DNA from: Paramacrobiotus metropolitanus
Lineage: Eukaryota > Tardigrada > Eutardigrada > Parachela > Macrobiotidae
Length of the DNA stretch: 64,000 bases
NCBI RefSeq assembly: GCF_019649055.1
Contig: NW_026570237.1
Coordinates: 496,001 to 560,000, forward strand
Direction of reading: 5' to 3'
Shown: in pieces, positions 7,305 through 63,863 of the stretch
How positions within the stretch are numbered: position 1 is the stretch's first letter
Layout of the letters: each line of letters begins with the position of its first letter
Program-made: the position numbers and the translations under genes
Notes under the pieces: model-generated
The model's input: only the letters and a program-made list of their open reading frames with translations
Database searches by the model: none
What the model was told of the DNA's origin: nothing

Positions 7305-7308
7305 GTAA
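7305..7308. repeat. Target-site duplication GTAA, left copy
   Basis: GTAA directly precedes the 5' LTR and is repeated directly after the 3' LTR at 19342-19345. A 4-bp duplication is usual for Ty3-type integrases (family knowledge). It shows the element inserted as a whole. Confidence 0.85.
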
Positions 7309-7677: not shown

Positions 7678-7688
7678 TGGTAGCAGAG
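7678..7688 (+). promoter_or_regulatory. Primer-binding site for initiator-Met tRNA
   Basis: TGGTAGCAGAG starts at the first base after the 5' LTR. It is complementary to the 3' CCA plus the acceptor end of the common metazoan initiator-Met tRNA, whose acceptor strand starts AGCAGAG (recalled from established tRNA sequences). The 11-nt match supports ordinary tRNA-primed reverse transcription even though the element encodes no RT. Confidence 0.8.
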
Positions 7689-7886
7689 CCGTGAACAGAC
7701 GGTTTCTGAGTTTTTCACCCGTTGGCGAACGGCCACGATCATCTGTTTGGCGAACGGCCATATTGATCTGGATCATCTTGATTTCATTGATCTCATTTCA
7801 CCAGTAAGGCACTGGTTTTCCTCATCTGAAGCAAGGCGCGCTCATCGATCGGATTGCCAGCATCAGCGGCTGCACTGACTAGAGAG

Positions 7887-7963
7887 TCTCCTGTAGGAGA
7901 ACTCGTCGTGCACTTCCAATTAGACGGCAGAAGGCTGCGGTGCAAGAACTCTCCTGTCGGAGA
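7887..7963 (+). repeat. Paired leader hairpins
   Basis: TCTCCTGTAGGAGA (7887-7900) and TCTCCTGTCGGAGA (7950-7963) are two near-identical self-complementary hairpins, each followed by ACT, spaced 63 bases apart in the untranslated leader. Their position between primer site and gag fits a dimerisation or packaging role. That role is inference from position only. Confidence 0.55.
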
Positions 7964-8493
7964 ACTTGTACTGTTTCCTCTGCTAGGCAGCGGGCACCTC
8001 TTGTTGGGGTCAAGGCTGTCGGGCACAAGAGCCGAGAAGCCACGAGTTGGCAGCACCGAATGAGGTGCCAAGATATCAGTTAAACGCGCTCCACCAAATT
8101 GGCTGTAGAGCGACCTGCTGATAGGCCTGACAAGCCCAGCAGAAGGCAGACTAGGTCGGACAGGAAGGCGCCACAACCGTGCGGAATACGGCTGCGCGGG
8201 ATCGGAGTTGGAGAAGATCATCTGGATCATCTTCATCATCTGGATCAGCTTTTTGCGGGATCGGAACGGTAGACAGGTAAAAACCGTTATTAATTATTGG
8301 ATTGGTCGAGGCGTAGAAAGCGCAATTTTTATTGGTCCGTATTGAGCTGAGCTAGACGTAGGCGTAGCTTCTGCACACGACACGCAAGTCTGGCCGTCGA
8401 TCTGTGACGTCAGGCCGGTCAGAAAATTTTAACGGGCACATGTGATTGGTCAGTTAAACAGGTTCTGATTGGTCAAAATTTTTAACGGTAAAA

Positions 8494-8846
8494 TCGATCT
8501 AAAACGATCTCCTACCGATCGCCCAGCAGTGAAAACGATTTTTTTTCATCGGAAACGATCTAAACTTAACTAAAGGAAGTTGGTTTTAATTGAATCGAAG
8601 TGACCAAAAAGTGACCATCTCGGAGATCGATCATCTCGAGATCGTCAGTGATCTTGACATCAGTTTAGATCGATCTAAAACGATCTCGCAACGATCTTTT
8701 ATAAGTTAAAAACGATCTCTTCTCATCGTAAACGATCTAATTTCAGTCAAAGGAAGCTGTTTTCAATCGAACTGAGTTGACCGAAAAGTGACCATCTCGG
8801 AGATCGATCATCTCGAGATCATCAGTGACCTTTGAGATCAGATCAG
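8494..8846 (+). repeat. Leader tandem duplication, ~177-bp unit
   Basis: Two imperfect copies start with CGATCTAAAACGATCT (8495 and 8671). Both end in a palindromic block around CTCGGAGATCGATCATCTCG, offset by 176-177 bases. Seven copies of AACGATCT occur between 8480 and 8910. The rest of the leader (7678-9113) has no gene on the plus strand. An antisense open frame at 7793-8239 is probably accidental. Confidence 0.75.
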
Positions 8847-9113
8847 AGAGTGACCTTTACAGATGAGCTGAGATCATCTATTTCAACCGAATACGAACTC
8901 TAAAACGATCTTTCCAGACGTTTTATTGATATTAGCAGTTGAACGAGATCATTTTGAGGCAAACCTCTCGATCTTTTTATCGAAAAAGTGACCTTTAAAA
9001 TCGAACTCGATCAAAGTAGATCAGCTAAAAAGTGATCTCAGGGACTTAAACCGATCTCATAATAACGTGTGTGTGAGCAAAACCAACAGGTGCGTCACAG
9101 TTATCCGATCACA

Positions 9114-9842
9114 ATGGACAAAGAAACAATCGAACCGACATCTAACAGTAGTCAGGGGAGCCGTAGCTCTCACGGGTCACAGCAAGGTGCACATAACCCG
9201 TACAAGAAAGACTTGTACCCGTACTCGCGTCCAGTAGGACATGATCGAAATACTCGAGCACCAAAAGTCCCTGTGAAGAAGGATTCACGTGGGTCGGACG
9301 CAACGTACCAGAAGGCACTCGAAGCAGTGTCAGCTCAGGAGAGCTCAAGCGACGACCTGAAACGATCTCCCGCGCCTGCGGCGGGAAGTAGCGAGGTGAA
9401 CCAGGAGGTCACCAAAGAAGGAACGAAATCGGAAAAAGTCGCGGAGATGGATCAGACATCGCAAAAGGATATATCAGACCAGGATAAGAAGGAGAACCTG
9501 GTCAAAACCGATCTCACGGAGCAGCCAAAGATCACATCAGATGATCTAAATGAACTCAGGCTAGACGATCTCACACTTGGAGATGAAACTGGAACCGAGG
9601 ATCTCTTCATGAGTCCGATGGCATCTGATGAGATGATGTCTAATCGCGGAAATGAAGAATCGTACTTCACTGAGGATGAGATGACATTGAATATGTCATT
9701 CAAAACCGCAATGAAGGAAGCTGATCGAGCTCAGGGATTGACACCTTTTGAGGACATCCCCGAGAGTCTGATCGAAAGGAATCAGACAGGAAGATCGTCA
9801 ACGTACGATCTCCATCTCCGAACAGCCCTACCTCAAACTTGA
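9114..9842 (+). CDS. gag: Gag N-terminal extension ORF
   Basis: The ATG at 9114 has a good context (CACAATGG). The frame is also open upstream to 9069 without an ATG. The product (about 242 residues) is low complexity, Ser- and Thr-rich at the start and strongly acidic later, with no recognised domain. It overlaps the next frame, which is open from 9752, and that frame lies at -1. The sequence near the overlap end reads like ordinary protein in the downstream frame from about 9800. This suggests that the two frames make one Gag, joined by recoding or separated by a one-base deletion in this copy or assembly. I see no standard slippery heptamer in the overlap. A splice-donor-like CAGGTGCGT lies just before the ATG. 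Confidence 0.6.
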   Translation: MDKETIEPTSNSSQGSRSSHGSQQGAHNPYKKDLYPYSRPVGHDRNTRAPKVPVKKDSRGSDATYQKALEAVSAQESSSDDLKRSPAPAAGSSEVNQEVTKEGTKSEKVAEMDQTSQKDISDQDKKENLVKTDLTEQPKITSDDLNELRLDDLTLGDETGTEDLFMSPMASDEMMSNRGNEESYFTEDEMTLNMSFKTAMKEADRAQGLTPFEDIPESLIERNQTGRSSTYDLHLRTALPQT

Positions 9843-12748: not shown

Positions 12749-12790
12749 GTGCCGGTGAGCCTACTGATCCTCCGCAACCGAAACCACCGG
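12727..12790 (+). promoter_or_regulatory. -1 ribosomal frameshift signal with pseudoknot
   Basis: GGGAAAC at 12727-12733 lies in the Gag frame as G GGA AAC, a canonical slippery heptamer. After a 6-nt spacer, 12740-12749 pairs perfectly with 12760-12769 (10 bp). The loop bases 12752-12757 (CCGGTG) pair with 12785-12790 (CACCGG) to give an H-type pseudoknot. The Gag stop lies within stem 1. A -1 slip enters the open frame that continues to 13758. Slippery site, spacing and structure all match known gag-pro signals. Confidence 0.9.
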
Positions 12791-13758
12791 ATAAAGGAGG
12801 AACGCAGAATCGGACTGCAAAAGAGATGGCTAATAAGATGCCATCGTTAGTGGGCAAAGTACCACAGCCACAGAATCGGACTGTAGGCGAGACGGCTAAT
12901 AAGATGCCGTCATATCAGCTGAAAGAGATGGTTCATAAGATGCCATCACAAGTGGACAAAAGGCCACTTCCGCAGAATGTTACTGCGAAGTCACCACAGA
13001 ATGGTACTGTGAGTGAAATGGCTCAAAAGATGCCATCACAGGTGCAGAAAGGACCACCTGCGCAGAATGGTACTGCAAAACAGCAGAATAGTACTGCTGA
13101 TGATCAGCTGACAAATAAAGGAAAATGTAGTGCCGAAAAGCTAAAAGAACGGCGCGCTCAACGTAACGAGATCATTCGAAAGGCGAACTTGAAGAAGAAA
13201 CTGGAAGAAAAAGAGACGAATGATCAGCACTCCAGATTCCGAGAGTTTCTACGTAATCAAAACGCAGAGAAGGAGATGAAAACGAAGTTTGGGAATTGTC
13301 CGGAAGATGAAGATGATACGGCACTAAAACAAAAGTGGTTAGAACAGAACGCCACAGTGGGCAGCAAAGATGAAAAACCACTTCCTATAAGGAAAGCACC
13401 AGTGGGAGATCGTGGAGCAAGTGCTAACGCTAAAAGCGATGATAAAAAGATCGTCGCAAATGGTCAGGAAAAGGAACTGACGCTGCGAAAGGTGCAGCTT
13501 AAAGAGAGCGAACGAGCACAACAGATCTCCGATGACTCACTGGATGATGCACTTACGCTGCAGCGGAAACAGATTTGGCAAAAGCGGTACATCAACCTAA
13601 TGAAGATCGCGGCAGGTGGATACCCGTATCGCCGAAAGGATCTCAGAAAGCGAGAATGTCGAGTGCAGAATACTGGGACATGCAGCAGCTGCGAACTGAA
13701 TTTCAGAGAAAACGTCTTGATGAGTTGGTTACCGGGAAACCAGCTCAAGGGTCAATGA
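12730..13758 (+). CDS. Frameshift-encoded Lys/Pro/Gln-rich spacer protein
   Basis: This frame is open from 12697 and is reached by the -1 signal at 12727; its first ATG is at 12826. The N-terminal half contains four degenerate repeats of the form NKMPS..K.P.PQN.T (nt about 12826-13090). The second half is charged and helical with KKKLEEKE-like stretches. No protease, dUTPase or RT motif is present. A second GGGAAAC in this frame (13734-13740) lies 18 bases before its stop. The region just upstream looks protein-like in the next frame as well, so the handover point is uncertain. It probably forms the front of a Gag-Pol-type polyprotein. Confidence 0.65.
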   Translation, partial: KRPRSVGAGEPTDPPQPKPPDKGGTQNRTAKEMANKMPSLVGKVPQPQNRTVGETANKMPSYQLKEMVHKMPSQVDKRPLPQNVTAKSPQNGTVSEMAQKMPSQVQKGPPAQNGTAKQQNSTADDQLTNKGKCSAEKLKERRAQRNEIIRKANLKKKLEEKETNDQHSRFREFLRNQNAEKEMKTKFGNCPEDEDDTALKQKWLEQNATVGSKDEKPLPIRKAPVGDRGASANAKSDDKKIVANGQEKELTLRKVQLKESERAQQISDDSLDDALTLQRKQIWQKRYINLMKIAAGGYPYRRKDLRKRECRVQNTGTCSSCELNFRENVLMSWLPGNQLKGQ

Positions 13759-16700
13759 ACCCTGTCCCAGTGTTCAACGAGATGGAGTATAAGAAGACAC
13801 TCGTTGACCAAAACCGAAATGCTCCTCCAGCTGATAAACCGCCGAATTATGGAGAAAAAGTTCCGTTACAAAAGTTGCCAAGTGGCGGATTCGCTATCAA
13901 ACCGACTGAAAGGTCACGGGACTTTACCGAAGCATTGCAGAAAGATCCCAATGACAAGTCACCAGTTCGAACAGATGGGATGTCTTCACAAACCGATCCG
14001 ACGAAAACGAACAATGAGGTATCGGCGAAAGTGATCGACTGGATGACCCAAAACGGATATGAGATGGTCACATATGAAAGATCACCAGATCAACCGGACA
14101 GCGAAGAAGATGAGCTAAAACGAGTTGACCAGATCACAGATGAGATCGTTGAGCATCTGCGTGACAAATCAGATGATGTCACATTGCATCAGACCATCTC
14201 TGAGGTGATCAAAGATCACTCAGAAGTTGCGAAGGGGCAACCGAATGAAACCGAAAAGATCATCAACGATGAAAAAGCTGCAAAGAAAAAGGGGTGTGAG
14301 ATGGGAAAAAGCTCAAAAGATGGAAAGAAGAGACAATTTTACGACATTCGAACTGATGTCCCACATAGGATCGATCATCTGAGTTCGATACTGAGGAAGA
14401 ACAACACCTTAGCGAAGGGGCAGGTGCATTCTTCAGCAGTTGATATGGATCCGGGATCTGTATCGCTCATCCCAGTCAAGTGTACTGTTCGTACGCTTAA
14501 AGTGCAAAATGGATCGAAACATAACTTGCCGAAAAGGATCGAAGCGTATACACATGAGGTGAAAATCGGCGACATAAAGGTCTTAGCGATGTTGGATACT
14601 GGTGCAGAAACATCGTTAATCAGCCGACCGTTTTGCGAAAAGAACGGACTTCACGTCTTACCGCTCCCACCAGATCGATTGGTGAGGATTAATGGAATTA
14701 GCGGCACATCAGGCTTCAACGTGACGCATTATTGCGTAGCACCAGTGACATTGCGGAAACGAACCAGTCAACACTCCTTCTATGTACGACCTAAAACGGA
14801 TGATTTACAAGTTCTACTGGGACATGATTTTCTGGCGACAAAGTTCGTCCTGATCGATAATCATGGGGAGGAGGAAGTTGAAGATGAGCCGAAATCAGCT
14901 GTCAAAGTACAAGCTGGAAAGGTCACTGGACTTGGAGCAGCTATATCGGATCTCAAGGCTAGCCCAGTACCAGAGGCACCGGGAAAGCAGATGATGAACC
15001 AACGAAGGGGAGGTTCACCTGCTCAGCTGTCGATAATTGAACAGATGGCAGCCATCCAAAAAGAGATCGCGACCCGATTGGGGAGGTCATCAGTTAAACC
15101 GAAAGAACGGGCAAACGTCGTTCTCCCAGTACCAGAGGCACAGGGAACGACGAAAGATGACCAAAAAGTAGCGGATAAAGACGTTATCCCAGTACCAGAG
15201 GCACTGGGAATGAACGATGAAACGCCGTTAACAATGGAGCAGATCGCAGCCATACAAAAGGAAGCAGCTGCTGAATCGAAACGATCTCTTGTACCGGGAA
15301 TGGAGTGGGCAAAGTCTATCCCAGTACCAGAGGCACTGGGAATAAAAGTCGCCAAAGTATGGGACGACAAGAAGTTTGAAAAGGAATTAGACGCTCCAAA
15401 AAAGATGACACAAGATGAACAGATACTCTTAAGCGAGATACGAGATGGAGCGATTGAACAGCTGAGAGATCATCGAACCGAAAAACAACCGGAGATCATC
15501 GAAATCTCATCTGACGAGATCAAACGGACATCGAATCATGGGTTTTCGAATAAGGAAATCGACGACACCAGTAACCCGTTCGCTTGCCTCGATAAAATGA
15601 CACTGGAAGAACGTATTAGCAGTTGTCATCACGGTTACAATGAGAACCCGTGTCGAGTGCAACCTCAAGGGAGATGTGAGGAATGTCGTCGAGATGCTTG
15701 TCAGGATGACCTCAGGGATTGGTCAAGCTGCAATGCGGCAATCGAAGAGATGAAAAACCATGTCCAAAAAGAAGTTAAAAGTATTAGCAGGACAAACTCA
15801 ATGTGGAATCAGCACATCGAGCGCTACCATTGGCAGCGATATAAGGAATGGCTATCTTGCGTTCGGAACTTCATCTTAACAAGGGGAAGATCCTTACTTC
15901 ATTGGGATAACACGGTCGATAGCTCGATTGCGAACTTAGGGAGATCAGACCCGAAAGTTGCAGCTCGAAATAAGCAGCTGAAAGATCCTCACCTTGCAAT
16001 GATCATCGATGAACTCGAACATTTAGCAGACGCCCAAACGAGATCGAAGTTCGAAGTTCATTACCAGTTGTGGAATGGAATTTTGTACCGAATAAAAGAT
16101 AACAAAGGGAGATTAGAAAGGTCATACGTCGTACCACTGTCGATGAGACGAGCGATTATCCATGCGCTGCATGATGAGAAATCAGCAGGTCATCTTGGAT
16201 ATGAAAAGACGCTAGCAGCGATAAGACTGCGCTACTATTGGGACAGAATGAGTACGGACGTCAAGAATTATATACTCGCATGTCAAGGATGTCAGTTCAC
16301 TAAGACACCAAGGAAATGTCCACCTGGAAAACTGCAAGAGATCAAAGTGGGACGTCCTTTCTTCCGAGTATACGCCGATCTGAAAGGACCTTTATTACCG
16401 ACGAAGAAACGTGGATATAAGTATATTGCGGTGTTCATCGATCAGCTGACGAAATATGTGATAGCAGTACCGATGAAAACGGCGACAGCGAAGGAATTTG
16501 CCAAAGTCTTCGTAAAACATGTGATATTGGTACATGGAGCACCGCATATCTTACATACGGATCGCGGAAGGCACTTCACAGCGGAAGTCTTATCGAAAGT
16601 CACCAACGTGTTCAAAATCAAACACACGTTCGGAACAGCATACCACCCTGAAGGCCAAAGCCAAGTGGAACGGCAGATGCAGATCATCGGAGATGGTCTT

Positions 16701-17384
16701 GCACAGTATATGAAGGCGGGAAACGAACGAAAATTTAACAAGTACCTGCCGTATGTGGTCTCAGGCATGAATAGAGTGGTACATTCCACAACCGGTTATT
16801 CAGCATACTACATGCTACATGGAAGAGAGATTACCATGCCGGAGGATGTGGTGACAAAAACGAACTTACCAGATGATTATGGTACTCCAGACGAATGGGT
16901 GGAGACCATGAAAAAGAATCTGACATTCGCTGAAGAAGTTGCCAGATGCAATATAAAGGACGCATACGAAAAGAACGCCGAGATTTATAACAAGAAGAAA
17001 TCGGAACCGAACTTCAAAATCGGCGACTTCGTACTTATCCGACTCCCCAAAGATACGAAACAAGGGAAAAAGGAAGTTCAATCGGATTTCAAGAAGAAGT
17101 ACGATAAGGTGTGGAAAATTCTCAGCTTTCCGCGACCGAATGAGGTCGAAGTCATCGAAATGAATCCGATAAAGGAAGCCGACTTGAAAGTCGTTTCCAT
17201 CGATCGACTAAAACCATGGCATCCTCCATTGACGGAAGAATTAGAGGCCGGTCAGGATACAACGGTATCAGAGCGCGTTTTTCCCAAACCACGCAACGCT
17301 ACCAAGATAAATGAAAGGACTACTGAAACAGAGCACGCTTCTCCCAAATCACTCTGCTACATGGAGAAGAAGGTGATGAGGTAG
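13548..17384 (+). CDS. pol: Aspartic protease-integrase polyprotein lacking RT/RNase H
   Basis: The frame is open from 13548 and lies at -1 to the preceding one. The protease has LDTGAETSLIS with the catalytic Asp codon at 14595, and LLGHDFL about 80 residues later. Next comes a linker with four near-identical PVPEALG-type repeats (14963, 15124, 15188, 15321) and a Cys cluster (CHHGY...C...CEEC...C, about 15630-15690). The segment that normally joins RNase H to integrase is conserved. The integrase has an HHCC zinc site (His 16161/16170/16191, Cys 16281/16290) and catalytic Asp 16377, Asp 16560 and Glu 16668. The last two are 35 residues apart (DD35E). A KIGDFVLIRLP segment starts the C-terminal DNA-binding domain. 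A normal Ty3 pol carries about 500 residues of RT/RNase H between protease and integrase; none is seen here. Confidence 0.9.
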   Translation, partial: CTYAAAETDLAKAVHQPNEDRGRWIPVSPKGSQKARMSSAEYWDMQQLRTEFQRKRLDELVTGKPAQGSMNPVPVFNEMEYKKTLVDQNRNAPPADKPPNYGEKVPLQKLPSGGFAIKPTERSRDFTEALQKDPNDKSPVRTDGMSSQTDPTKTNNEVSAKVIDWMTQNGYEMVTYERSPDQPDSEEDELKRVDQITDEIVEHLRDKSDDVTLHQTISEVIKDHSEVAKGQPNETEKIINDEKAAKKKGCEMGKSSKDGKKRQFYDIRTDVPHRIDHLSSILRKNNTLAKGQVHSSAVDMDPGSVSLIPVKCTVRTLKVQNGSKHNLPKRIEAYTHEVKIGDIKVLAMLDTGAETSLISRPFCEKNGLHVLPLPPDRLVRINGISGTSGFNVTHYCVAPVTLRKRTSQHSFYVRPKTDDLQVLLGHDFLATKFVLIDNHGEEEVEDEPKSAVKVQAGKVTGLGAAISDLKASPVPEAPGKQMMNQRRGGSPAQLSIIEQMAAIQKEIATRLGRSSVKPKERANVVLPVPEAQGTTKDDQKVADKDVIPVPEALGMNDETPLTMEQIAAIQKEAAAESKRSLVPGMEWAKSIPVPEALGIKVAKVWDDKKFEKELDAPKKMTQDEQILLSEIRDGAIEQLRDHRTEKQPEIIEISSDEIKRTSNHGFSNKEIDDTSNPFACLDKMTLEERISSCHHGYNENPCRVQPQGRCEECRRDACQDDLRDWSSCNAAIEEMKNHVQKEVKSISRTNSMWNQHIERYHWQRYKEWLSCVRNFILTRGRSLLHWDNTVDSSIANLGRSDPKVAARNKQLKDPHLAMIIDELEHLADAQTRSKFEVHYQLWNGILYRIKDNKGRLERSYVVPLSMRRAIIHALHDEKSAGHLGYEKTLAAIRLRYYWDRMSTDVKNYILACQGCQFTKTPRKCPPGKLQEIKVGRPFFRVYADLKGPLLPTKKRGYKYIAVFIDQLTKYVIAVPMKTATAKEFAKVFVKHVILVHGAPHILHTDRGRHFTAEVLSKVTNVFKIKHTFGTAYHPEGQSQVERQMQIIGDGLAQYMKAGNERKFNKYLPYVVSGMNRVVHSTTGYSAYYMLHGREITMPEDVVTKTNLPDDYGTPDEWVETMKKNLTFAEEVARCNIKDAYEKNAEIYNKKKSEPNFKIGDFVLIRLPKDTKQGKKEVQSDFKKKYDKVWKILSFPRPNEVEVIEMNPIKEADLKVVSIDRLKPWHPPLTEELEAGQDTTVSERVFPKPRNATKINERTTETEHASPKSLCYMEKKVMR
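13734..13763 (+). promoter_or_regulatory. Candidate second -1 frameshift site
   Basis: GGGAAAC at 13734-13740 is again in the correct phase (G GGA AAC) of the upstream frame. A short 5-bp stem (13748-13752 with 13759-13763) follows 7 nt later, with a possible weak pseudoknot to 13801-13806. The structure is much weaker than the first signal. The alternative is a one-base deletion upstream that split one long frame. Confidence 0.5.
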
Positions 17385-17455
17385 CAAACCGTCATTTGGA
17401 ACAGAGTCCCAAACTACGCTCAACGCTATCCGGATCAGCGGAAGACGTAACGGAG

Positions 17456-17896
17456 ATGAAGAAAAAGAAACGAGGAAGATCGAAGAGACAGGATAAGGAC
17501 TTCGAAACGGCAGTCACTATCAAGTTGAGTGAACGGGCCGGGGATTTAACAGCAGCAGACGGAGTAACAGAGCGAGCTCCGCAAAAAGACTCCAATCGAT
17601 ACGCTGGGTCTTTTTCCGAACCACGCACTGCTACCGATCAGTCGAAAGGGACTGAACCAACAGAGCATGAGATGAAAAGCTCTGGTAGGCAACAGCAGCT
17701 TGAAGCAGTGAAAGCAACAGCTGCACAGCTGGCAAACGACATTGCCGCTGCTATTGAGCAAAGGAAGGTCAAAAAGACAAAGTCAAAACCCACTCCTACG
17801 GAATTCCTAACGCGACAAGGAGCTGATGAAGATGCCGCCGATACGGGACTCCTTGATCGGATAACTAAAGGACGCAAATACACAAAACAAGATTAG
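17456..17896 (+). CDS. Accessory ORF with basic nuclear-type motif
   Basis: The first ATG is at 17456; the frame is open from 17327 and overlaps the end of the integrase frame at -1. The product starts with a very basic run (KKKKRGRSKRQ), then is Ser/Thr/Glu-rich with an Ala/Gln helix and a Lys-rich segment. Parts of its DNA (17608-17680) repeat the coding sequence of the integrase C-terminal tail (17277-17353), so the region grew by internal duplication. There is no env-like signal peptide or membrane segment. It could be made by splicing, reinitiation or frameshift. Confidence 0.5.
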   Translation: MKKKKRGRSKRQDKDFETAVTIKLSERAGDLTAADGVTERAPQKDSNRYAGSFSEPRTATDQSKGTEPTEHEMKSSGRQQQLEAVKATAAQLANDIAAAIEQRKVKKTKSKPTPTEFLTRQGADEDAADTGLLDRITKGRKYTKQD

Positions 17897-17959
17897 TGGG
17901 CGTTATGACATTACGAGCAGGAGTTGAGAAGGAGTAAAAGTTGACAACAGACATCGCTG

Positions 17960-18247
17960 TTGCCACCATCGAAATTAGCTAAGACTAGCGGCGGCAGGTC
18001 AAAAACCGATGTAACTTCCCAAGAAGAAGGTGTAATTGTGGAAGAAAAATCGAAAGATGATGAGACGGACTCGGCTCCCACCCAGAGAAGTGAACCGAAA
18101 TGGACGAAGTCATCATCAAGTTCAATTCCGAAGCTTTCAATTGATGAAAAGGAATCTGCTACGAACCCGACCGATTCGGCAGACAATTCAGATACTGGGA
18201 AAAAGTCAAGAGATCGAGAACGATCCCTATATATCGACTCATCTTAG
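17960..18247 (+). CDS. Low-complexity Ser/Asp/Lys-rich accessory frame
   Basis: This 95-codon frame has no ATG (first possible start TTG at 17960). It lies in the same phase as the accessory frame that stops at 17896, after intervening stops. The composition (Ser, Asp, Glu, Lys) resembles the N-terminal Gag extension. It may be an exon, a decayed tail or chance; no family is recognised. Confidence 0.3.
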   Translation: MPPSKLAKTSGGRSKTDVTSQEEGVIVEEKSKDDETDSAPTQRSEPKWTKSSSSSIPKLSIDEKESATNPTDSADNSDTGKKSRDRERSLYIDSS

Positions 18248-18322
18248 TCAAGAGTAGCTACGGTATACTTGGCCGGCTCTCTAAATAAGGTCGAAAGATG
18301 GATTGTGCGACGCAATGAACTT

Positions 18323-18501
18323 TACCAGGGAGGCAAGCTGAGATGAGCTTGAAAGCCGATGAAAAATGGCTAAGTTCCTCCATGACTTATGCTGAATTAA
18401 CTGTACCAGATGATGTCGCACATCCACGATCAGAAAAATGATCTTACCAGGGAGGAAGCGAACTAACTTCGCTTATCTATATGATGTCCCTCCATGACTT
18501 A
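18323..18501 (+). repeat. Two related stem-loop units in the 3' untranslated region
   Basis: Units 18323-18389 and 18445-18501 both start TTACCAGGGAGG and end CTCCATGACTTA. Each contains an internal hairpin in different sequence: AAGCT/AGCTT at 18335-18350, and AAGCGAA/TTCGCTT at 18456-18474. Conserved ends with covarying stems suggest an RNA element such as an export or packaging signal (inference). The rest of 18248-18972 holds no gene, and no clear polypurine tract precedes the 3' LTR. Confidence 0.55.
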
Positions 18502-18972
18502 ACCGGATCTCGTTATGAAGTCGTACAATTGATACGCAACTATTCCAAAGCTGAAGCAGTATTCCTAAGACGTACATTCGATACGCACCTTATTCCTACA
18601 AGCGGATGTGATGAAAGTCGCACGAAGCTGCGCATGATGCTCAAGCGGAGCAAAGTTGCTCAAGATGGAGCGGAATGGGCCAAAGATGCGGTAAACGGTG
18701 GACAGGACCTGTGAACTATGCCAGTCAATGGAGGATCCTAGTCTACAGGTTTCATTTAACCACCTTTGTTGATCTGTTTTTAACTGTTGATCTGTTTAAA
18801 TGGACTAGTATTTTTCTACAGATCTCTTTAATTCACATTGTGCATTTGGAATCATGTGATAAGAAGGAATAAGAGATTTGATGTTTTTTTACGAGAGCGC
18901 GCACAGACCACCGATCGGAGCGGAATGGAATGGATCGAGCTTCGACGGAGCTCAGCCTCCCACCCAGAGGCA

Positions 18973-19341
18973 TGTGAGGCGATGGCTCCCTTGCGTCCAC
19001 CTGCGTGACGCTACTGGCGCTACAGGAGTGCTTCGTTGCACTACTCCGTGGGGAATTGCCGTCTGTGACGCAGCGCTTCTCTGATTGGTCGGCTACTGCC
19101 GTTCATTGTGTTCACTGCTGCGCAGTGTATTAGAGTTGTCGAGAGCAGGTGGAATTTGGCTCTCTGAGTGTATTGAACGTCAGTGTGTTTTGGTTCTCGA
19201 TCGGAGACGCTAATAAATTGTATAACGTAGTCTGGATATCGTGCGTTGCGCATTTCGTCCCTTGTACGACACGTTCTACATTCTACGGAGTCCTGTCAGT
19301 CTGGGCTTCCGTCCTGGACTCTTTCACAGTCCACGGTTATA
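18973..19341 (+). repeat. 3' LTR, 369 bp
   Basis: It is identical to the 5' LTR except at 19166. The poly(A) signal AATAAA is at 19212-19217. The sequence before it (CCACCCAGAGGCA) is only weakly purine-rich, unusual for a plus-strand primer. The GTAA duplication follows at 19342-19345. Confidence 0.95.
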
Positions 19342-34102: not shown

Positions 34103-34390
34103 TCAGAATACCGCACGAAACGTTGCACTAACGACACGCAAATTGTATAACCGCAAAAATGTACTAACGTACCTGATGGAGTTTGGCACTCGGCACACAT
34201 GCCCTTTAGACTTAGAGTCTACGAGTTGCAAAATTAATGTCCGTTCTTGCACTATAAACAGATTACCAACATATGCGCTGATAAAGCAAAGAATTAGTGG
34301 TGTCTCGGTCGAAAATCTGCTGAAACCCGACATGGAACATTAACAGAGCAGTCGATAAGGAAGCAAACGCGTTCAACATGGTAGACATTA
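34103..34390 (-). pseudogene. Family-W gene, N-terminal remnant
   Basis: Minus-strand sequence from about 34390 reads MLNAFASLSTAL, then HVGFQQIFDRDTT, closely matching the start of the gene at 60879 (MLNAITSLSTAP, HVGIEQIFNRDTT). After that the phase is lost. It lies divergently next to the acidic gene copy at 35.0 kb, the same arrangement as at 60.9/61.5 kb. Confidence 0.6.
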
Positions 34391-34494
34391 AGGAAAATTA
34401 TAGGTGACATTTCAGGGAAATAAATGTTTTGTGAAAATAAAATATTGGCGAAAAAGCGCATCAAGAAACCCAACTAAAATTTTTAGAATCGGAA

Positions 34495-34720
34495 AATATC
34501 TTATATAGGCTTTTGAGAAGTGAATTGTACCGAAACTTTGTCCTCGCGTGTACCGCCCAATAGGCAGTGCGCCTCTGCGATATGCAGTACGGTAGTACTT
34601 CGCACGTGTTGTACGGCTTAGTACTTTAGCGCGTATTTCTGCACAATGTTGTAAAATTCTTCTAATATAATTTCTTCCTAATTCCCAAAGGGAATTAGGA
34701 AGCCAGATTCTCAGATTAAA
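34495..34720. promoter_or_regulatory. Divergent promoter region, decayed copy
   Basis: Sequence between the two divergent relics matches 60980-61200: TATAGGCTT (34505), then TAGTACTTTAGCGCGTATTT near 34620-34640. A perfect 13-bp palindrome with a 3-base spacer (34674-34702) is present here but not in the other copy. Confidence 0.5.
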
Positions 34721-35020
34721 TCACCACATGATCTCTTCTTATTGGCACAACATGCGCCCAAACGATGGCTTTTCACTAAAAGCGGAAATAACTTTCAATT
34801 TACTGTAAATCAAAGTTTTATTTTGATTGTGCAATTGCGGCGTAATTTGTAATGCATTGCTAACCTTCGTGATACAGAGATTACGTTTGTAGAGCGTGTT
34901 TTGAGTCCGATGACAGAGAAGATTTGTTGGAATTTTGAATTCAAAGACACCAAGTGTGTTGTGGTTTTACTTCGGCAGATCAGTGTAATTATTTGTATTG
35001 TTTTCTGATCGTGAATTTTT

Positions 35021-35717
35021 GTGAACATAGCTCCAAATGTTCCTAAACGTCTTCGGGAGCGTAAGAAGGGTGAATCTTCGAGTTGTCATAGTAATTCCAT
35101 CAGTGGCAGTGGTTCGAGTGCTAATTTTGCGGATGAGTCAGAAGTCTCCTTTATCTCCGCGTCCAGTATCCCTAGCAATGAGTCTCACTTTGGAAACGCA
35201 TGGTTTATTAGCGGAAGTTGATCCTCATGCTGTGGACTATATTGTCAGCCCTGATCAGGAAATTAGTGGTCAGCGTGATGTGGCTGAATTTATAAGTGTG
35301 CACAGTGGTAGTACCAGTGCGAGACTCAGTAATTCGGCTGAGATGCTAGATTGCTATCAGGAGAATGGTCAGCGCTACAAAGTCATCTCCACGACAGACA
35401 CAGGAAGTTTCACCACTTTGGAATCCACGGCAGGTGACTGGTATGATGATGATGAAGAAGACAAGTTCGCATCTTGTTCTACTGATCTGTTACCGAATGC
35501 AGTAAAGAGACTAGCAGCAGTTCCGGATGTTCATGTAGAACTTGAAACGGATAAGAGCTCAGAATTCAAAGAACAGCCTATGGTTTATCGAGATAAATCG
35601 CCTGCTAAGCGCGACAAAAAAGTTTATATTGTCCTACATCCAGGAACCGGACTGTTTCTTAATAGCAAGTTATATACTTTCCGCATCAAGGAGGGAATGC
35701 GTTTCGCCACCGGGTGA
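35021..35717 (+). pseudogene. Acidic family-A gene, decayed copy
   Basis: Coding runs in two phases. The first (to about 35175) covers the N-terminus with NFADESEVSFISASSIPSNE. The second (from about 35175) covers DPHAVDYIV, RYKVISTTDT and VLHPGTGLFLNSKLY. It is clearly paralogous to the gene at 61500-62500. The start codon position is ATA (35027) where the intact gene has ATG. A small indel shifts the frame near 35180, and the C-terminal third with the basic tail is missing. Confidence 0.7.
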
Positions 35718-56345: not shown

Positions 56346-58635
56346 TATTATCAGAACTTCTGAAATGCATGCGTCGGTTTTCTCGATTGGTATGGCATCG
56401 TAATAATATCACTAAAAACTTTGGTAGAAAAAGACATCAAAATTTTGTTACACAGAACCTTAGGCACTGTGATTTGCACACCGCGTGTGCACTCTGATGC
56501 CAAACGCTGTACTTTCGCAAATCCTATTAAAAAAACCGAAGTTGTAAACCTAATGCTATCGACACCTTGAAAACGAAAACTTTCATTTAATTGACACCGA
56601 GTCGCATCCACTTCCCGAAATTGTGTTACTGTTATCACTTTCGTTTCCTTACTCTTTATTTTTTAAATTGTAACTGTCGTGCAATAAAGAAAAGGATAAA
56701 ATAAAGACGTTGTGTGCGATGGAAATATGCACTTCCCAAACCACGACCAGTCGGGGAATAGAGCGACTCTTAATCTCAACTTCTTATGTATTTCATGGAG
56801 CGAAAGTTCAAGGATGTTGATGTACAAGTATGAGATGATATGCAAGGATGAAGAAGAGGATCCGGAACTCGAAAGCCTGCTGAAAGAGAAGACACGAAAG
56901 GAAACACAAGGAATGCGAGAAGTTATACGTTACCTGTCCGACGCTAGATGGTAGCTGAAGCGTATGAGTAAAACGAATCCATCAACCTGGCGCTACAGGG
57001 CATGAAGATCGAAGAGACCGAAAGGTCACGGCAAACAAGTGGGATCAAGTGGGTAGCCTGTTACGTCACGAGACTATCCGAAGATGATAATGCACGTCGA
57101 CGAAGTAGAGGAATGACCCTGACGATAGGTGAAAGGTCACCCAGAGGTCAGTTTGAACAGCCTCACTTGGAAAGAGAAGACCAGAGCAAAAGCCTGAAGT
57201 TAATCAGATCGAGTAACAAGACTCTACTTTTGTTGGGATTACAACTCTTGACATTTGTGTGGGCGACGAGCGCCTTATATAGCCGTGGGCACCGCAAGTG
57301 CTGGCTCTTCGTACGCGCAGGTACGGGTCTGAGAACAATAGGGATTTAGAATCTAACCAATAAGAGACATCTAAGGACACGTGGACTAATCACACCGCTG
57401 CATCACTACACGTGGACTAATGAGAACATCAGGTCAACTAATACACTAGAACAATAGGTTGAGCTACGTCATCGGAGCGCGGTCACGTCGAAATGGCAAG
57501 TCGCGGTCAAAGTTCTCTGCTGGGGATTTCTGAGAAGTCGAAGTAGAGACTCGGGGTCAGGACTCGCGTAGAAGATGTAGTAAAGCCTAAGCCTTAGTTG
57601 TAAGGGTAGAAGTAGTAAAGTAGTACCGATGTGTACTAAGGGACGCCAGTACACGTCACCCCCGCAAACGAGATTTCTCTGGATCGTAGTGGAACAAAAG
57701 TGAAGCTCTGCGGAACGACGTGGAACGAAGAGGAAGGAACATAGGGACATAGGAAAAAGTAACATCTGCTCCATCCGCATAGTGCATGCAACATCTAGCA
57801 TTATCGCCAAATTCCATCCCGACTATCCGGTGCCATCAAAAGTAAGTAACATCGCTCGGTCCGGTAAGTTGTTAGTGAGTTTGAGTGTTATAAGTCATCG
57901 GATCCTGGAGCGTAACTGGCAATCCGGAAGTCCAAGGAAGTGGAAAGGCGGAGAGCAGGAACGTCCATGAGATCCAAGGTGTTATCGTATTCAAAAAGAT
58001 ATTGAAAAATGTGTTGTTTATAGCATTAAGTGCTTTAAGACTGATCAATTAGATGTTATTCCGTATTATCCGACTGGCAACAGCACGAAAGTATTCGTCT
58101 ACTAAAACCACTGCACTACGAACAACTAATAAAAATTAAAGGATTAAAAGACTGGCTGCAACAAGGAAAGTTATATCTGTACTAAGTCATGAAACGTGGT
58201 AGGAAGCGAACCATCAGACATTATACTACGAAAGCTAGTTAAAAAGGAAAAAGCTAGAAATCCTACTGCACTGATAAGAAAGACTAAGTTCAGACGATAC
58301 GCAATGCAAAACGCTTAGACTGACAACACACTACAGGAATTAACAAAAACTGAAAACTCTAAAGTTGCTGACTCTGATAAAGTGTAAGATCTGTGCATCA
58401 TTCTATTCTACAAAGCACTCTACAACGCACTATGCTGGAATGGGAACTGAGACACTACAATACGACTGTTAACAAAAATACAAACTCTACTGCACATGCT
58501 GCGAAAGCTTATCTGCTAATTCAATGCTGTCTGTACGTGAAAGCAGAGCTGTAATCAGTGAGATTTTCAGTGGCAGATACTTGATTTGATAGCGGCGTTT
58601 GAATTATTCTTATTTGTTGAGAATTTTGTATTATC
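56346..58635. other. Probable LTR-element end plus intergenic DNA
   Basis: Bases about 56840-57050 can read as Glu/Arg-rich coil including EETERSRQ, like EETAERSRH in the 12-kb element Gag. An LTR-like stretch follows with TGTTACGTCACG at about 57060, TATATAG at 57276, and a direct repeat ACACGTGGACTAAT at 57377 and 57408. Ends and target duplication could not be fixed. From 57970 to 58635 only AT-rich DNA precedes the next gene. Confidence 0.35.
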
Positions 58636-58980
58636 ATGTCAAAGCGTGGTGAAATTATTAAGCAGCACAGCGGTGCTCGAGCTTTGTTGTTTCCTGTGAA
58701 TGCATTGGATGATCGCGTGAAAATGGCAGACAGTGTGAGAGAGCGTGTGATGGAAGATCTCTCTTCCAAGGTTCTCGATTGGCATGTGAAAGACGACTTG
58801 AAGAACGAACCTAATGCGGCGAAAGCGGTGGAGAAAGCGAATGTTGAGACTCCAGTGCAGTCTCGTGAAGTTCCGAAAGAAGCAGAGAAGACGATGACCA
58901 GTGGGTCTCAGCAGTCAGCTATGAGTAAGGAAGAAGCGGACAAGGAGTTCTTTCGCAAGTATTATCTTTCGCAAGTTTAG
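58636..58980 (+). CDS. Small charged hypothetical protein
   Basis: The ATG at 58636 starts an intact 114-codon frame ending TAG. The first 60 residues are mixed and helical (VKMADSVRERVMEDLSSKVL). The middle is Glu/Lys/Ala/Pro-rich and probably disordered, and it ends with EFFRKYYLSQV. There is no signal peptide or membrane segment. It is the first gene of the compact unit continuing to the window end and shares its GCGGAA/GCAGT-rich codon style. No family recognised. Confidence 0.6.
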   Translation: MSKRGEIIKQHSGARALLFPVNALDDRVKMADSVRERVMEDLSSKVLDWHVKDDLKNEPNAAKAVEKANVETPVQSREVPKEAEKTMTSGSQQSAMSKEEADKEFFRKYYLSQV

Positions 58981-59584
58981 GGCGTAATCTTTTACGGCAT
59001 TTTTCGTGGAAATTCGTAGTAGTGCAGCGGGTCCATTGATTAGCATATGTTAAGCTAAGTCAGATTTTAAACGGCTTTACTTCCGTAGCACGTGTTCGAT
59101 TCCCCTTAAGGGCGAACTTTCTGCAAAACTTTGGTTTTATTTTTGTGTTTCCGGTATTCAGTTTAGTATTTATGGCGAAACTATGTGTGAAATGTTGAAG
59201 CTCGTGTTTGTGGTATTTATGCGGATAGGTTTTCCATACTTCGTATTACTCAGTGTATTATTAGCGACCTTAGCAGTAGCAATATTGTCAGCAGTTTAAC
59301 TTCGCATTTTTATTTAACTTCGCAAAACACGGAATCCTTCCTTCGTATTGAACATTGCGGCAGTTTCAGAGTACGCCAGAAAAATAAAATCAAAATAGAA
59401 CTTTTCACCAGTGTTCATCGTAGTTGAACAGTATTCACTCGGTAATTTGTGCAGAATATACAGAATAAAATTGCAAAAGGCGATCTGAATAAAATTGAAC
59501 GCAAATATACAAGACGTAAGAGAAAAGATAAAAGAAATAAAATCAATACAGCAATATAGCAGACACGGTAAAAGATTTCGTAAT
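58981..59584. other. Spacer, no gene
   Basis: Convergent intergenic region between the plus-strand gene and the minus-strand gene. A pol III promoter-like pair of boxes occurs at 59020-59030 and 59093-59103 but no tRNA folds. Several AATAAA-type signals lie at 59380-59550. Confidence 0.4.
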
Positions 59585-59974
59585 TCAGTTCTTCTTGAAA
59601 CGCTTGGCAGCAGGAGTTTTCAAATGCAGAGATCCATCAGGTTTACGTGAGAAAACCATAGCAACCGATTTTGGCATATCTCCACGTGTTTCAGTTCCTG
59701 GTGCGTTAGGACGCTCAGCAATCACGGTAGTTGGATCGCGCAGCAGAGATAGCGTGTCCTCAGCAGTTTCGGTTTTCGGCAGTAGCGGAATAGGATTTGC
59801 GGCCAAGAGTCCACACAGAGGCATCGGTCCGTGCATCGCAGCAGCATCGATTTTCATGGCAGTTTGACGCAGAATACTTTGTGCCTCAGTTCCGAGATAG
59901 GGAATTCGTACTTCGATAGTAGTTCCTTCGCGAGCACAGCGATCACAGCCACGATTATGCTCTTGAACCAGCAT
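59585..59974 (-). CDS. Hypothetical protein with CDRC motif and basic tail
   Basis: The ATG at 59974 opens an intact 129-codon frame ending TGA at 59585. It begins with HNRGCDRCAREG, one Cys pair that may be half of a metal site, followed by a helical Ala/Met-rich middle and a Pro/Thr/Glu-rich stretch. It ends in LKTPAAKRFKKN, a nuclear-localisation-like tail. It lies downstream of the family-W gene on the same strand, about 250 bp apart. No family recognised. Confidence 0.6.
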   Translation of the reverse strand: MLVQEHNRGCDRCAREGTTIEVRIPYLGTEAQSILRQTAMKIDAAAMHGPMPLCGLLAANPIPLLPKTETAEDTLSLLRDPTTVIAERPNAPGTETRGDMPKSVAMVFSRKPDGSLHLKTPAAKRFKKN

Positions 59975-60222: not shown

Positions 60223-60879
60223 TTAGCTGTGTTTGATCTTACCGACTCCTCGAGCTAATTCGTCCGACAGTCCCTGAGTTCGTCGATCATTCATTTCGCG
60301 GTATACAATCGCACTCACGAACTTGTCTCCTCCGATAGACGTTAGGCATCCAATCTCCAGTAAGAAGTTTCTTTCCTTGTGGTGGTACTTGATCCAGTTG
60401 TGTAAGCAGACAGTGTATGTTGTTCGGATGACGCGTTGAATTTCGAATTTCGTCATTGCGTATCCTCCTTCCTCCAGCACAGTCAGAATAGCGTTTCGCA
60501 GTTGCAGTCGCGTGGTAATTTCCTCGTTGCGATCTCGCTGAATTCGTGACGATACTTCCAGGAAACAACGTCATTCTTTCACTCTTTTGCGTAGGAACCC
60601 AGAAGTTACAGCAGTCTCGATGTACTTGTCGATGTTCAGCATGGTAAATTCATGATGTGCGTTGTTCAGTGTAGCCTTTAGATAATCAACATCCACGTAA
60701 AATCCAGAATCGGTATGATATCCAATGATAGTTCGGACGGCGAACTGAAAAGCTTCGTACAGTCGCATTTTTCGCGTGTAAAAACTCGTAGTGTCACGAT
60801 TGAAAATTTGTTCGATACCAACATGCAGTCCAGCAGGAGCAGTGGATAAGGAAGTAATAGCGTTTAGCATAGCGGACAT
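60223..60879 (-). CDS. Family-W gene, with in-frame TGA
   Basis: From the ATG at 60879 the frame runs 102 codons to a TGA (60573-60571). It then continues in the same phase for another 115 codons to a TAA at 60223, with protein-like sequence on both sides. Alignment with the 26-kb copy spans the TGA, which sits where that copy has Gly. Conserved blocks are HVGIEQIFNRDTT, DSGFYVDVDYL, SGFLRKRV and LLEIGCLTSIGGDKF. The product is soluble and helical, with a possible DNA-binding winged-helix shape (weak inference). The TGA is either a nonsense mutation or programmed readthrough. It is divergently arranged with the acidic gene at 61.5 kb. Confidence 0.6.
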
Positions 60880-60979
60880 TTCAGTAATTATAGGTCACGC
60901 TTCAAGGAAAATATAACGTCTCAGTAATTCTGGTAGGAAAACGTATGAGGAAACAGAACTGAAAATTTTTCGGAAGCGG

Positions 60980-61200
60980 TGATGACTTTTATAGGCTTAT
61001 AGCAGGAAATCGTGCAGTTGTTTGTGTGTATGTGTGTATCGCCCTTGTATGGCAGTGTGTCAGTGCAACCCGTAGTACGTATGTTCTTCTCATGTATTGT
61101 ACGCCTCAGTACTTTAGCGCGTATTTCGGTGCGGATGTACAGTTTTCTTCTCTGAATTATGGAATTGTTAGTTTGTGCGGTCAGATTTTCAGATTATCAG
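60980..61200. promoter_or_regulatory. Divergent promoter region
   Basis: Between the family-W and acidic genes lie TTTTATAGGCTTATAG (60989-61004) and CAGTACTTTAGCGCGTATTT (61107-61126). Both are conserved in the decayed copy at 34.5 kb, which supports a functional role shared by the family. Confidence 0.5.
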
Positions 61201-61499
61201 ATTTTAAATAGTAGGATATCTTTTTCCTTATTGCACGACTTGCGCCCTATCGTGGTTCAATATGCGGAAATAACCTTCAGTCTGTGGAAAAGTCAATTTT
61301 ACAGTAGATTTTCGGTGTAATCAGTAGCGTATGGTTAACCTTCGTGGTATGGCAGTTACGTATGGCAGTGTGCTGAGCGCGATGACAGTGCAGATTTGTT
61401 GCGGTCTCTGAATTCAAGAGATACCGACAGTGTTGTGATTTCGTCAGAGCAGTGAACTCTTTTGTTGTGGTTTTTCGATTTTTGATATTTTCGGTAATC

Positions 61500-62500
61500 A
61501 TGCCTCCTAAAGCGATTAAGCGTAAGCAGGAAAAGAGCTCTTCTCCTTTTCTTCTTCTTTCAGTAATAGCAGTTCGAGTAGTAGTGTTAACTTTGCTGAT
61601 GAATCGGAAGTGTCCTTCATTTCGATCTCCAGTATTCCTTCGAATGAGTCAGATGTGACGGAAACTCAGAGATTTTTGGCAGATGTTGATCCTTACGCAG
61701 TTGATTACATTGTGAGAGAACCTGATCCTGAAATTGGTAATCGCAGTGACGTAGCAGATGTTGAGAGTGCGCACAGCGGCAACTCCAGTGCAGGTCTCGA
61801 GAAATCAGCGGAAATGTTTGATTGTTTTCAAGAAGACGGGAAACGTTATAAAGTGATCTCTACGACTGATACTGAGAGTTTTACGACCTTGATGTCTACT
61901 CCCAGCGAAACGTATGATGATGAAGATGAATGTGCGTCGTGTTCAACTGGTCCTTTACCTAACACAGCGGAGAGATTAGCTGATTTGGCGGATGTGAATG
62001 TTGAAGTAGAGTCAGATCGCAGTTCGGACTTTGAAGAGCAACCCATGGTGTATCACGAGAAAACTCCTCCGAAACGTGATGGCAAAGGTAACATAGTCCT
62101 TCATCCTGGAACTCGTTTGTTTTTGAATGGCAAGTTGTACCATGCCGGAAAACTTATCAGTGTGAAGAAGTTTAACCATTTTGTGCGTAATATGTCCAGA
62201 GAGCGGAATCGATATCTTAAAACCCAGTATTTATTTGCTCATCCTGATTCGATTGAGAGTCTAAACTTGATTGCGCAGTTGCATCGGAAAAATGACAGCG
62301 TCGTCGACTTCCCCACGCGGATGTTGTTCAATGGCGGGTTATTGCATACGCAGCATGTTGATAAACCTTCCCCAGCAGCAGTGCGGAAGAGGCAGCGGGA
62401 AATGAGTCCTGAAATTGTTGAAATTCCTTCAGTTGTGTTGTCGCGTGAATCTTCTCCTGAAATCCCTGTTCAGTCTCGTAAGAAGCGACGAACTTTTTGA
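61500..62500 (+). CDS. Acidic family-A protein with basic C-terminal tail
   Basis: The ATG at 61500 matches the family N-terminus, but the long frame (61526-62500) lies at -1. The shift falls somewhere in 61526-61658, probably near the TTCTCCTTTTCTTCTTC tract. The main frame carries NFADESEVSFISISSIPSNE, DPYAVDYIV, RYKVISTTDTESFTTL, then a basic/aromatic block (KKFNHFVRNMSRERNRYL). It ends with SRKKRRTF, a nuclear-localisation-type tail. The first 170 residues are very acidic and Ser-rich, as in activation domains or charged chaperones. The paralogue at 35.0 kb reads through the N-terminus without this shift. The function is unknown. Confidence 0.65.
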
Positions 62501-62939: not shown

Positions 62940-63863
62940 ATGGATCTTAATGCAGCTTTTAATTACATGGTAGATGCTTTGTGAAGTAACGGTCATCAGT
63001 ATGGTAATCGCGGAAATTATCGTGGTCGTGGTAATAATCGGCGTATGAATTACTATCGTCCTTATTCTCGTGGTGGTTATCGTGGAAGAGGTTATAACGG
63101 ATATCAGAATAATGCTCAGCAGTGGCAGCGCAATCCTCAGTATCCTTTGGCAAATAATGGCGGAATCGGTGTTAACGGTGTTCAGTTGGTCGTACCGGAG
63201 AATGTACCTATTGTTGGAGCGGTTATGCCTGTTGTGAATAACCCTGGTTGGCAAGCTAAGAACGCGGAAGTTGTCCAGCAGAACAAGGCGTCTTTGCAGT
63301 TGAATCAGCCTGTGGTGAATGAGGAAATGGATATTAACGAAGAGAACATCGTTCCTCAGCAGCAAGGTCAGAATGTCGGTAATGCTAACGGTGTTGTTGG
63401 TGTGAACGATCAGAATCCTGTGGCGGTTGGCAATGTGGTGAATCCTGAAGTTGTAGCTCAAGCGGTAAATAATGTCCAGAATGCGATGAATGGCGGAAAT
63501 GTTGCGGCAGAACCTTCTCAGAATGCTGTGGTGAATGAACCTTCAGTTGTGGTTCCTGGTATTGCGTATGTTCCTATGAATGGTGACGGAAGACCTCAAT
63601 ATCCTTCAATCAATCCCTCGGATATTTTTCAGCGTAACGCAGATGAAGAACGTCGTAAACAGTCAGCAGAGCGAGCTCGTATGGCGGCGGATGCTAAACG
63701 TAATGATTTGTCCGGTCTACAGTCTCGTTCTTCATATCCAGATGTGCAGCGCAGTCGTCTTCGCGTCCAGTCATCTGATAACCTTGTCGCCCCTGATCCT
63801 AGAGCTCATCGTCGTAATAATTCTGTGGATAATTCTTTGCAGTCAGCCTGTAAACCTCAGTGA
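62940..63863 (+). CDS. RGG/Asn/Gln-rich protein with in-frame TGA near start
   Basis: The ATG at 62940 gives MDLNAAFNYMVDAL and then a TGA at 62982. The same phase continues with YGNRGNYRGRGNNRR and an ATG at 63045, running to TGA TGA at 63861. The N-terminal part is Arg/Gly/Tyr/Asn-rich like RNA-binding RGG domains, the middle is Asn/Gln/Val-rich, and the last 80 residues are Arg/Ser-rich and charged. Without readthrough the protein would start at 63045 (272 residues). It resembles nucleocapsid-type or phase-separating proteins only in composition. The window ends soon after, so the unit is probably incomplete. Confidence 0.6.

What the first reader, a model, noticed from the sequence alone, without database searches (positions are those of the whole stretch)
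60223..62500. Mobile or viral gene pair present at two loci with the same divergent layout
The family-W gene (minus) and acidic family-A gene (plus) with their shared promoter occur at 60.2-62.5 kb and as a decayed set at 34.1-35.7 kb. Protein blocks, promoter motifs and order are conserved. Neither family is recognised. This is a multi-gene transposing or endogenised unit extending from about 58.6 kb past the window end.
Basis: seen in the sequence. Interest (0 to 1): 0.7.

Follow-up and report, generated by a model that had tools for sequence, protein, structure and literature searches.

The report
Accessory gene pair of giant retrotransposon
The two back-to-back genes are accessory genes of a very large, recently mobile retrovirus-like jumping element in an animal genome, probably a tardigrade; many copies seem to have lost their own copying enzyme yet keep these extra genes, which hints that the genes do something the element needs.

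Summary
In detail: genes B (-) and C (+) lie head to head at 60223-62500, and a broken 65% identical relic with the same layout lies at 34266-35714. The pair is one part of a 26.8 kb LTR element (window 56675 to C17:579451) with LTRs 0 mismatches in 984 and a 4-bp target duplication. The block recurs at 17 loci at 89% or more, window included, and 10 older loci. The family is Ty3/Gypsy-like: the C80 copy has protease, RT, RNase H and integrase. The window copy has none of RT, RNase H or integrase core; 13 of 19 loci carry a different cassette there and 3 a close RT block, so movement in trans is inferred. In 15 of 16 countable copies A and B are antisense to gag; the window copy has the block inverted. 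Genes A-F show purifying selection. B has an antisense homologue in a cousin subfamily. No viral relative was found. Closest known: plant Retand and Grande elements. A new variant of a known kind; functions of A-F are inferred only.

The parts
56671..56674 (.). left copy of the 4-bp target-site duplication TAAC; the right copy follows the other LTR at C17:579452
56675..57658 (-). LTR (3' LTR in element sense, which is the minus strand); partner at C17:578467-579451
   Evidence: 0 mismatches in 984 aligned, 1 gap
57659..58551 (.). region X next to the 3' LTR, shared with cousins C34 and C13
58558..58832 (.). 275-bp stretch repeated inverted at C17:562120-562394, left end of the inverted block
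58636..58980 (+). possible small gene (114 aa); selection test significant against C80 only
59585..59974 (-). gene A, 129 aa, open in 5 of 5 copies read; antisense to gag in the usual arrangement
60223..60879 (-). gene B, cut by one in-frame stop in this copy; uninterrupted in 4 of 4 other copies read; antisense to gag in the usual arrangement
60880..61499 (.). 620 bp between the starts of B and C, possible two-way promoter (inferred)
61500..62500 (+). gene C, frame broken in the serine-rich start; acidic middle, basic end
62940..63863 (+). gene D, RGG-rich, early stop in this copy
34266..35714 (.). old broken relic of the pair: B piece (-) 34266-34397, C pieces (+) 35015-35218 and 35031-35714

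Best explanation
The gene pair is the accessory module of a giant Ty3/Gypsy-like LTR retrotransposon family. Shown: long terminal repeats, target duplications, gag and protease matches, RT, RNase H and integrase in the C80 copy, and a block of extra genes between pol and the 3' LTR, in which A and B are antisense to gag and C and D sense. Shown for the two such copies read (C17, C86b): the RT-RNase H-integrase part is absent and a cassette with genes E, F and a pol-derived protein stands there; the same cassette is found by DNA match at 11 further places. Inferred: these copies are copied and integrated in trans by enzymes of RT-bearing relatives, while gag and the accessory proteins serve the element's own RNA or expression. 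Inferred: B and C act in the nucleus as regulators of element transcription or RNA export, expressed from the 620 bp between them, and D binds RNA. The window copy is a very recent insertion whose A-D block is inverted and whose B, C, D and gag-pol frames are interrupted.
For: TG..CA ends with duplications TAAC (C17), GTTA (C86b), CTAC (C13). LTR mismatches: C17 0/984, C76 0/979, C46 0/981, C192 1/981, C86b 3/985, C91 4/976, besides 1-13 gap columns. C80: RVT_1 1.4e-33, RNase H 9.1e-18, H2C2 9.9e-19, rve 4.4e-8, protease 1.4e-7; Ty3 Gag-Pol 7q5b E 3.2e-60. Window copy: gag 0.0014, protease 1.1e-4, H2C2 0.001, no RVT or rve hit. Cassette at 13 places counting partial ones; RT block at 91% or more at C80, C292, C347. 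dN/dS in close copies: A 0-0.16, B 0.05-0.24, C 0.23-0.37, D 0.09-0.15; between C17 and C86b E 0.32, F 0.10, gag 0.17-0.25, pol-derived parts 0.09-0.29. B homologue antisense in C34: 26% over 173 aa, E 9e-19.
Against: No transcript data. No fold confirmed: B piece mean pLDDT 63, no PDB match at E <= 0.001 among 23; C mean pLDDT 39. No Pfam family over its cut-off for A to F. Gag and protease of the window copy are under their Pfam cut-offs. RT absence was read directly only in C17 and C86b; for the other cassette copies it rests, which scored 40 of 93 candidates. Copies share ancestry, so dN/dS rows are not independent, and frames that are probably no genes also reached p below 0.01 in 3 rows. 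If the host is as inferred the assembly is Nanopore-based, so stops, frame breaks and the inversion may be errors.
Confidence: 0.75

Rival explanations
1. The pair is a remnant of a DNA virus or other virus that was captured by the host or by the element.
For: B and C have no recognised cellular family, as is common for viral genes.
Against: The pair lies between pol and LTR of an LTR element in every copy whose surroundings were read; no relative of B or C confirmed in viral contigs (close relatives only).
Confidence: 0.06
2. Copies without RT are dead offshoots; the low dN/dS in A-D was inherited from RT-bearing source copies, and nothing acts in cis.
For: RT-bearing copies with the same A-D block exist, and every comparison includes shared ancestry.
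Against: E, F and the pol-derived part, whose block was not found in C80, show low dN/dS between C17 and C86b; the cassette differs by up to about 21% between copies and is at 13 of 19 loci; LTR pairs of C17, C76 and C46 have 0 mismatches.
Confidence: 0.25
3. A and B are chance open frames on the antisense strand and not genes.
For: No domain match, no transcript evidence; frames opposite real genes can show low dN/dS by codon phase (59541-59864 opposite A).
Against: A has 14 synonymous and 0 other changes between C17 and C86b, p 5e-9; B keeps 26% identity over 173 aa in C34 on the same antisense side.
Confidence: 0.05
4. The inversion of the A-D block in the window copy is an assembly error and not a real rearrangement.
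For: 1 of 16 countable copies; foldback of LTR pieces at one end; the likely assembly is from Nanopore reads.
Against: The contig reads through without N in L005 and L006 and the element ends keep a clean target duplication.
Confidence: 0.4

Closest known systems
Plant Retand, Grande and RIRE2 LTR elements with antisense extra ORFs between pol and 3' LTR (PMC11963269, PMC7264820; passages seen)
   Same: Gypsy type, long pol-3'LTR region, antisense gene there, some copies non-autonomous, suggested nuclear or DNA-binding regulator
   Different: Animal host; two antisense genes with sense partners; no TRP28 hit in A or B; longer pol-3'LTR region
Burro giant Gypsy-like elements of planarians (PMC6431247; passages seen)
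   Same: Animal Gypsy-like element with an internal region up to 25 kb and extra domains
   Different: Burro carries the extra domains mostly inside one huge polyprotein; here separate genes on both strands, and RT is absent from the copies C17 and C86b
Bdelloid rotifer LTR retrotransposons with captured ORF3 (PMC5408684; passages seen)
   Same: Small invertebrate host, family-specific extra ORFs, modular exchange, a non-autonomous family reported
   Different: Their ORF3s include enzymes and envelope-like proteins; here no known family was hit and the pair is divergent
Non-autonomous LTR elements that keep gag (TR-GAG; search listing only, otherwise recalled)
   Same: Keep LTRs and gag, lack RT
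   Different: Here protease, a pol-derived protein and further genes also show purifying selection

Membership tests
Ty3/Gypsy LTR retrotransposon (family level) | direct LTRs with TG..CA ends | tested here: met
Ty3/Gypsy LTR retrotransposon (family level) | short target-site duplication | tested here: met
   C17 TAAC, C86b GTTA, C13 CTAC; 3 of 3 copies examined
Ty3/Gypsy LTR retrotransposon (family level) | pol order PR-RT-RNase H-IN | tested here: met
   C80 copy; RT, RNase H and integrase order also in the C13 cousin
Ty3/Gypsy LTR retrotransposon (family level) | RT closest to Ty3 | tested here: met
   named Ty3 Gag-Pol chain 7q5b E 3.2e-60, second in the list after 4ol8 (2.6e-61, Ty3 RT by recall); solved structures only, no RT tree built
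Ty3/Gypsy LTR retrotransposon (family level) | gag of the Retrotrans_gag type | tested here: inconclusive
   PF03732 E 0.0014, 19.3 bits, under its cut-off 24.1, in C17; not listed for the C80 gag frame
Ty3/Gypsy LTR retrotransposon (family level) | tRNA primer-binding site next to the 5' LTR | tested here: inconclusive
   same stretch beside the LTR in C17 and C86b; its likeness to a lysine tRNA is recalled, not tested
Autonomous Ty3/Gypsy element (window copy) | own reverse transcriptase | tested here: not met
   no RVT hit at E <= 1 in the five gag-pol side ORFs scanned; close RT block not found on C17:552675-579451
Non-autonomous gag-keeping LTR element | LTRs and gag kept, RT lost, more than one copy | tested here: met
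   read in C17 and C86b; cassette at 13 places
Retand-type element | antisense ORF with TRP28 domain (PF04195) | tested here: not met
   no such hit in A, the B pieces or the C86b B frame
Retrovirus | envelope gene | tested here: inconclusive
   no envelope family among the ORFs scanned; a fast-evolving one could be missed, and transmembrane segments were not predicted

The most novel reading that the evidence does not exclude
A long-lived satellite-like retroelement lineage: it gave up RT, RNase H and integrase, stayed at about 26 kb, and survives by keeping gag, a pol-derived protein and six or more accessory genes on both strands under selection, so that these genes act in cis for the parasite, perhaps winning packaging or integration over the RT-bearing relatives whose enzymes it borrows.
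Probability: 0.35. Interest if true: 0.65.

Novelty: new variant of a known kind. Interest (0 to 1): 0.42.

Why it matters
In the papers seen, antisense accessory genes of LTR elements come mainly from plants, with a fungal case named. Here an animal element carries two antisense genes under purifying selection next to sense partners. Many copies lack RT while their extra genes look constrained, which makes it testable which retroelement proteins must be made in cis and which can be borrowed.

Tried and rejected
Host: the nematode leader, TTAGGN arrays and GATGGGTTTT arrays gave 0 matches each; these only narrow the host. 'The family has no RT': my first reading, dropped after one search placed RT hits inside C80, C292, C347, C12 and C177 and one search confirmed RT in C80. 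DNA virus remains: no support. Gene C homologue in C34: L019:3566-4084 gave E 0.32 and L019:6083-7318 gave E 0.028, neither accepted; a shared short motif that I noted was by eye only and is not claimed. DNA-binding fold for B: the helix and strand order of the model could fit a winged helix, but Foldseek found nothing at E <= 0.001, so it stays a guess. The model of C was useless. PDB sequence search: B piece one chance match at E 0.66, C none. A second RT-less family in the window: the 7308-19341 element proved to be a deletion copy.

Full report
What is there. The finding spans two divergent genes. B runs on the minus strand (60879 to 60223) and C on the plus strand (61500 to 62500), with 620 bp between their starts. 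Gene A (59974 to 59585, minus) and gene D (62940 to 63863, plus) flank them. A second pair at 34266-35714 has the same layout, at 65% DNA identity over 1426 columns. It is an old relic: 32 residues of B align, and C is split over two frames.

Copies. The window is G000:C17:496001-560000. The finding block gave 30 rows: 15 near-full loci at 89-100% identity (window included), partial ones on C491 and C347, and 10 diverged loci at 64-80%. Five of those 10 lie on C17 between 325 and 532 kb. Two further copies (C109; C76 near 52 kb) were seen only through the D region. That makes 19 loci of the close family. The tool says that such counts are lower bounds.

The element. Window 56675-57658 has a direct copy at C17:578467-579451 with 0 mismatches in 984 aligned positions and one gap. 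The ends read TG..CA, and TAAC flanks both sides. The C86b copy (416265-442046) has 3 mismatches in 985 and the duplication GTTA. LTR pairs on C76 and C46 have 0 mismatches, C192 has 1 and C91 has 4, besides gap columns. The family moved recently; no rate was at hand to turn this into years. Element sense is the minus strand. From the right-hand LTR follow a gag frame, an RGG-rich stretch with a protease match, and a pol-derived stretch with an H2C2 match; the gag and protease scores lie under Pfam's cut-offs. In the window copy this frame is cut by three in-frame stops (coordinates).

RT and the two types. Pfam found no RT or integrase core in the window copy. The RVT_1 search scored 150 of 1955 candidates in the genome; some hits lay at places that fit family copies, among them C80, C292 and C347. 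Of these only C80 was read: it has protease, RT, RNase H, H2C2 and rve, and a named Ty3 chain is among its two best solved relatives. Where C80 has this part, C17 and C86b hold a different stretch with genes E, F and a second pol-derived part. By DNA match the cassette is, wholly or in part, at C17, C86 twice, C76 twice, C46, C50, C101, C91, C93, C2, C68 and C491: 13 of the 19 loci. The close RT block (91% or more) is at C80, C292 and C347: 3 of 19; cousins at 81-82% are C12, C98, C13, C182, C177, C22 and C55 (40 of 93 candidates scored). C192 (a 206-base scrap of the cassette), C100 and C109 stay unassigned. So the cassette type is the larger group, and it includes the C17, C76 and C46 copies whose LTRs have no mismatch. 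Copying in trans by RT-bearing relatives is the plain inference; it was not observed.

Inversion. In 15 of 15 other copies where both the LTR-X part and the finding or D block were located, the two point opposite ways; in C17 they point the same way. C292, C100 and C347 could not be counted. Piecewise comparison with C86b shows C17:554558-561153 inverted, a 275-bp stretch present in both orientations at its two ends, and a foldback of two LTR pieces (461 and 490 bp) at the right end. In the usual arrangement, therefore, C and D are sense to gag, and A and B antisense. The cause is unknown; an assembly error is possible.

State of the genes. A is open in 5 of 5 copies read (window, C86b, C292, C101, C80). 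B has one in-frame stop in the window and is open in the 4 others. C is open across its start region only in C86b (1 of 5). D has an early stop in the window. Intact copies exist; no mend is described.

Selection. For close copies, dN/dS against C86b was A 0-0.16, B 0.05-0.24, C 0.23-0.37; D against the window 0.09-0.15 (many rows with older relics are saturated). Between C17 and C86b (44 rows): A 14 synonymous and 0 other changes (p 5e-9), B 0.09 and 0.20, C 0.37 (p 0.017), F 0.10, E 0.32, gag 0.17 and 0.25, pol-derived parts 0.09-0.29; two rows that pair different repeats of the pol-derived part (29% and 36% identity) gave 0.54 and 0.40. Frames of no known gene ranged from 0.19 to 4.5 or gave no estimate. 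Among them, over both comparisons, p below 0.01 came in 4 rows: 59541-59864, opposite A, twice; L006:4898-5203, opposite gag, once; and 58621-58977 against C80 (0.22, p 1.4e-3), which was not significant against C86b and may be a further small gene. This shows the limit of the test. C17 against C80 gave 35 rows, with low values again for the genes that both have (A 0.06, B 0.17, C 0.23, D 0.09, gag 0.22). Copies share ancestry, so rows are not independent.

Cousins. C34 shares part of the LTR and X and carries a B homologue on the antisense strand, 26% over 173 residues, E 9e-19. A C homologue there was not confirmed. The C13 cousin (18.9 kb, duplication CTAC, LTRs 0 mismatches in 931) has RT, RNase H and integrase and lacks the stretch with the pair. 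Two relics (L013, L017) have C and B on one strand.

Function. No family over its cut-off and no fold was found for A to F. By eye, C is acidic and serine-rich with a basic end and D is RGG-rich; nuclear regulation and RNA binding are inferences from that. Plant elements with antisense genes in the same place are also suspected to make regulators (passages of PMC11963269 and PMC7264820). Nothing was seen that shows the host using these genes; this was not tested.

Host. RPL3 is metazoan-like; its best solved chains 6xu6 and 4v6w are Drosophila ribosomes by recall. Assembly size 169,799,020 and contig C1 of 4,484,719 resemble the table for the tardigrade Paramacrobiotus sp. TYO in PMC8277472 (170,483,395; longest 4,484,941; GC 43.46%; passages seen); the contig number differs (533 against 684). 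The window's own GC is 0.41-0.52 in 2-kb steps. This is a match of statistics, not of sequence.

Print status. A search for tardigrade with LTR retrotransposon found 18 papers, 12 listed. Of these, passages of PMC11071193 were seen: it treats two other tardigrades and does not name Paramacrobiotus. The listings showed no title on this element; the library lacks most subscription papers, so this does not prove that it is unpublished.

Verdict. The pair is real and is the accessory module of a giant, recently mobile Ty3/Gypsy-like family whose larger group of copies seems to lack RT: a new variant of a known kind.

Noticed in passing
window 7308-19341: Second young LTR element (LTRs 370 bp, 1 mismatch) with protease, H2C2 and integrase core but no RT hit; in several other copies the two halves of its pol lie about 3 kb apart, so this copy seems to have an internal deletion.
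   Followed up: partly
G000:C17:325287-531674: Five of ten diverged loci of the pair cluster in about 206 kb of one contig; possible graveyard or small-RNA locus.
   Followed up: no
L005:1151-2119: Foldback of two LTR pieces (461 and 490 bp, 99.3-99.6% like the element's own LTRs) with an 18-bp spacer at the inversion end.
   Followed up: partly
L013:1184-2141 and L017:1081-1914: Relics with C and B homologues on the same strand instead of divergent.
   Followed up: no
G000:C13:640823-641305, C78:477360-477842, C76:464689-465171: RT hits inside open frames of more than 3,500 aa elsewhere in the genome, so other giant pol frames exist in this host.
   Followed up: no
L030:3305-4411 and L030:5556-6374: Two more ORFs (369 and 273 aa) between integrase and the accessory block in the RT-bearing C80 copy, without a Pfam family over cut-off.
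   Followed up: no
window 58636-58980: 114-aa open frame next to region X with low dN/dS against C80 but not against C86b; possible further gene.
   Followed up: no
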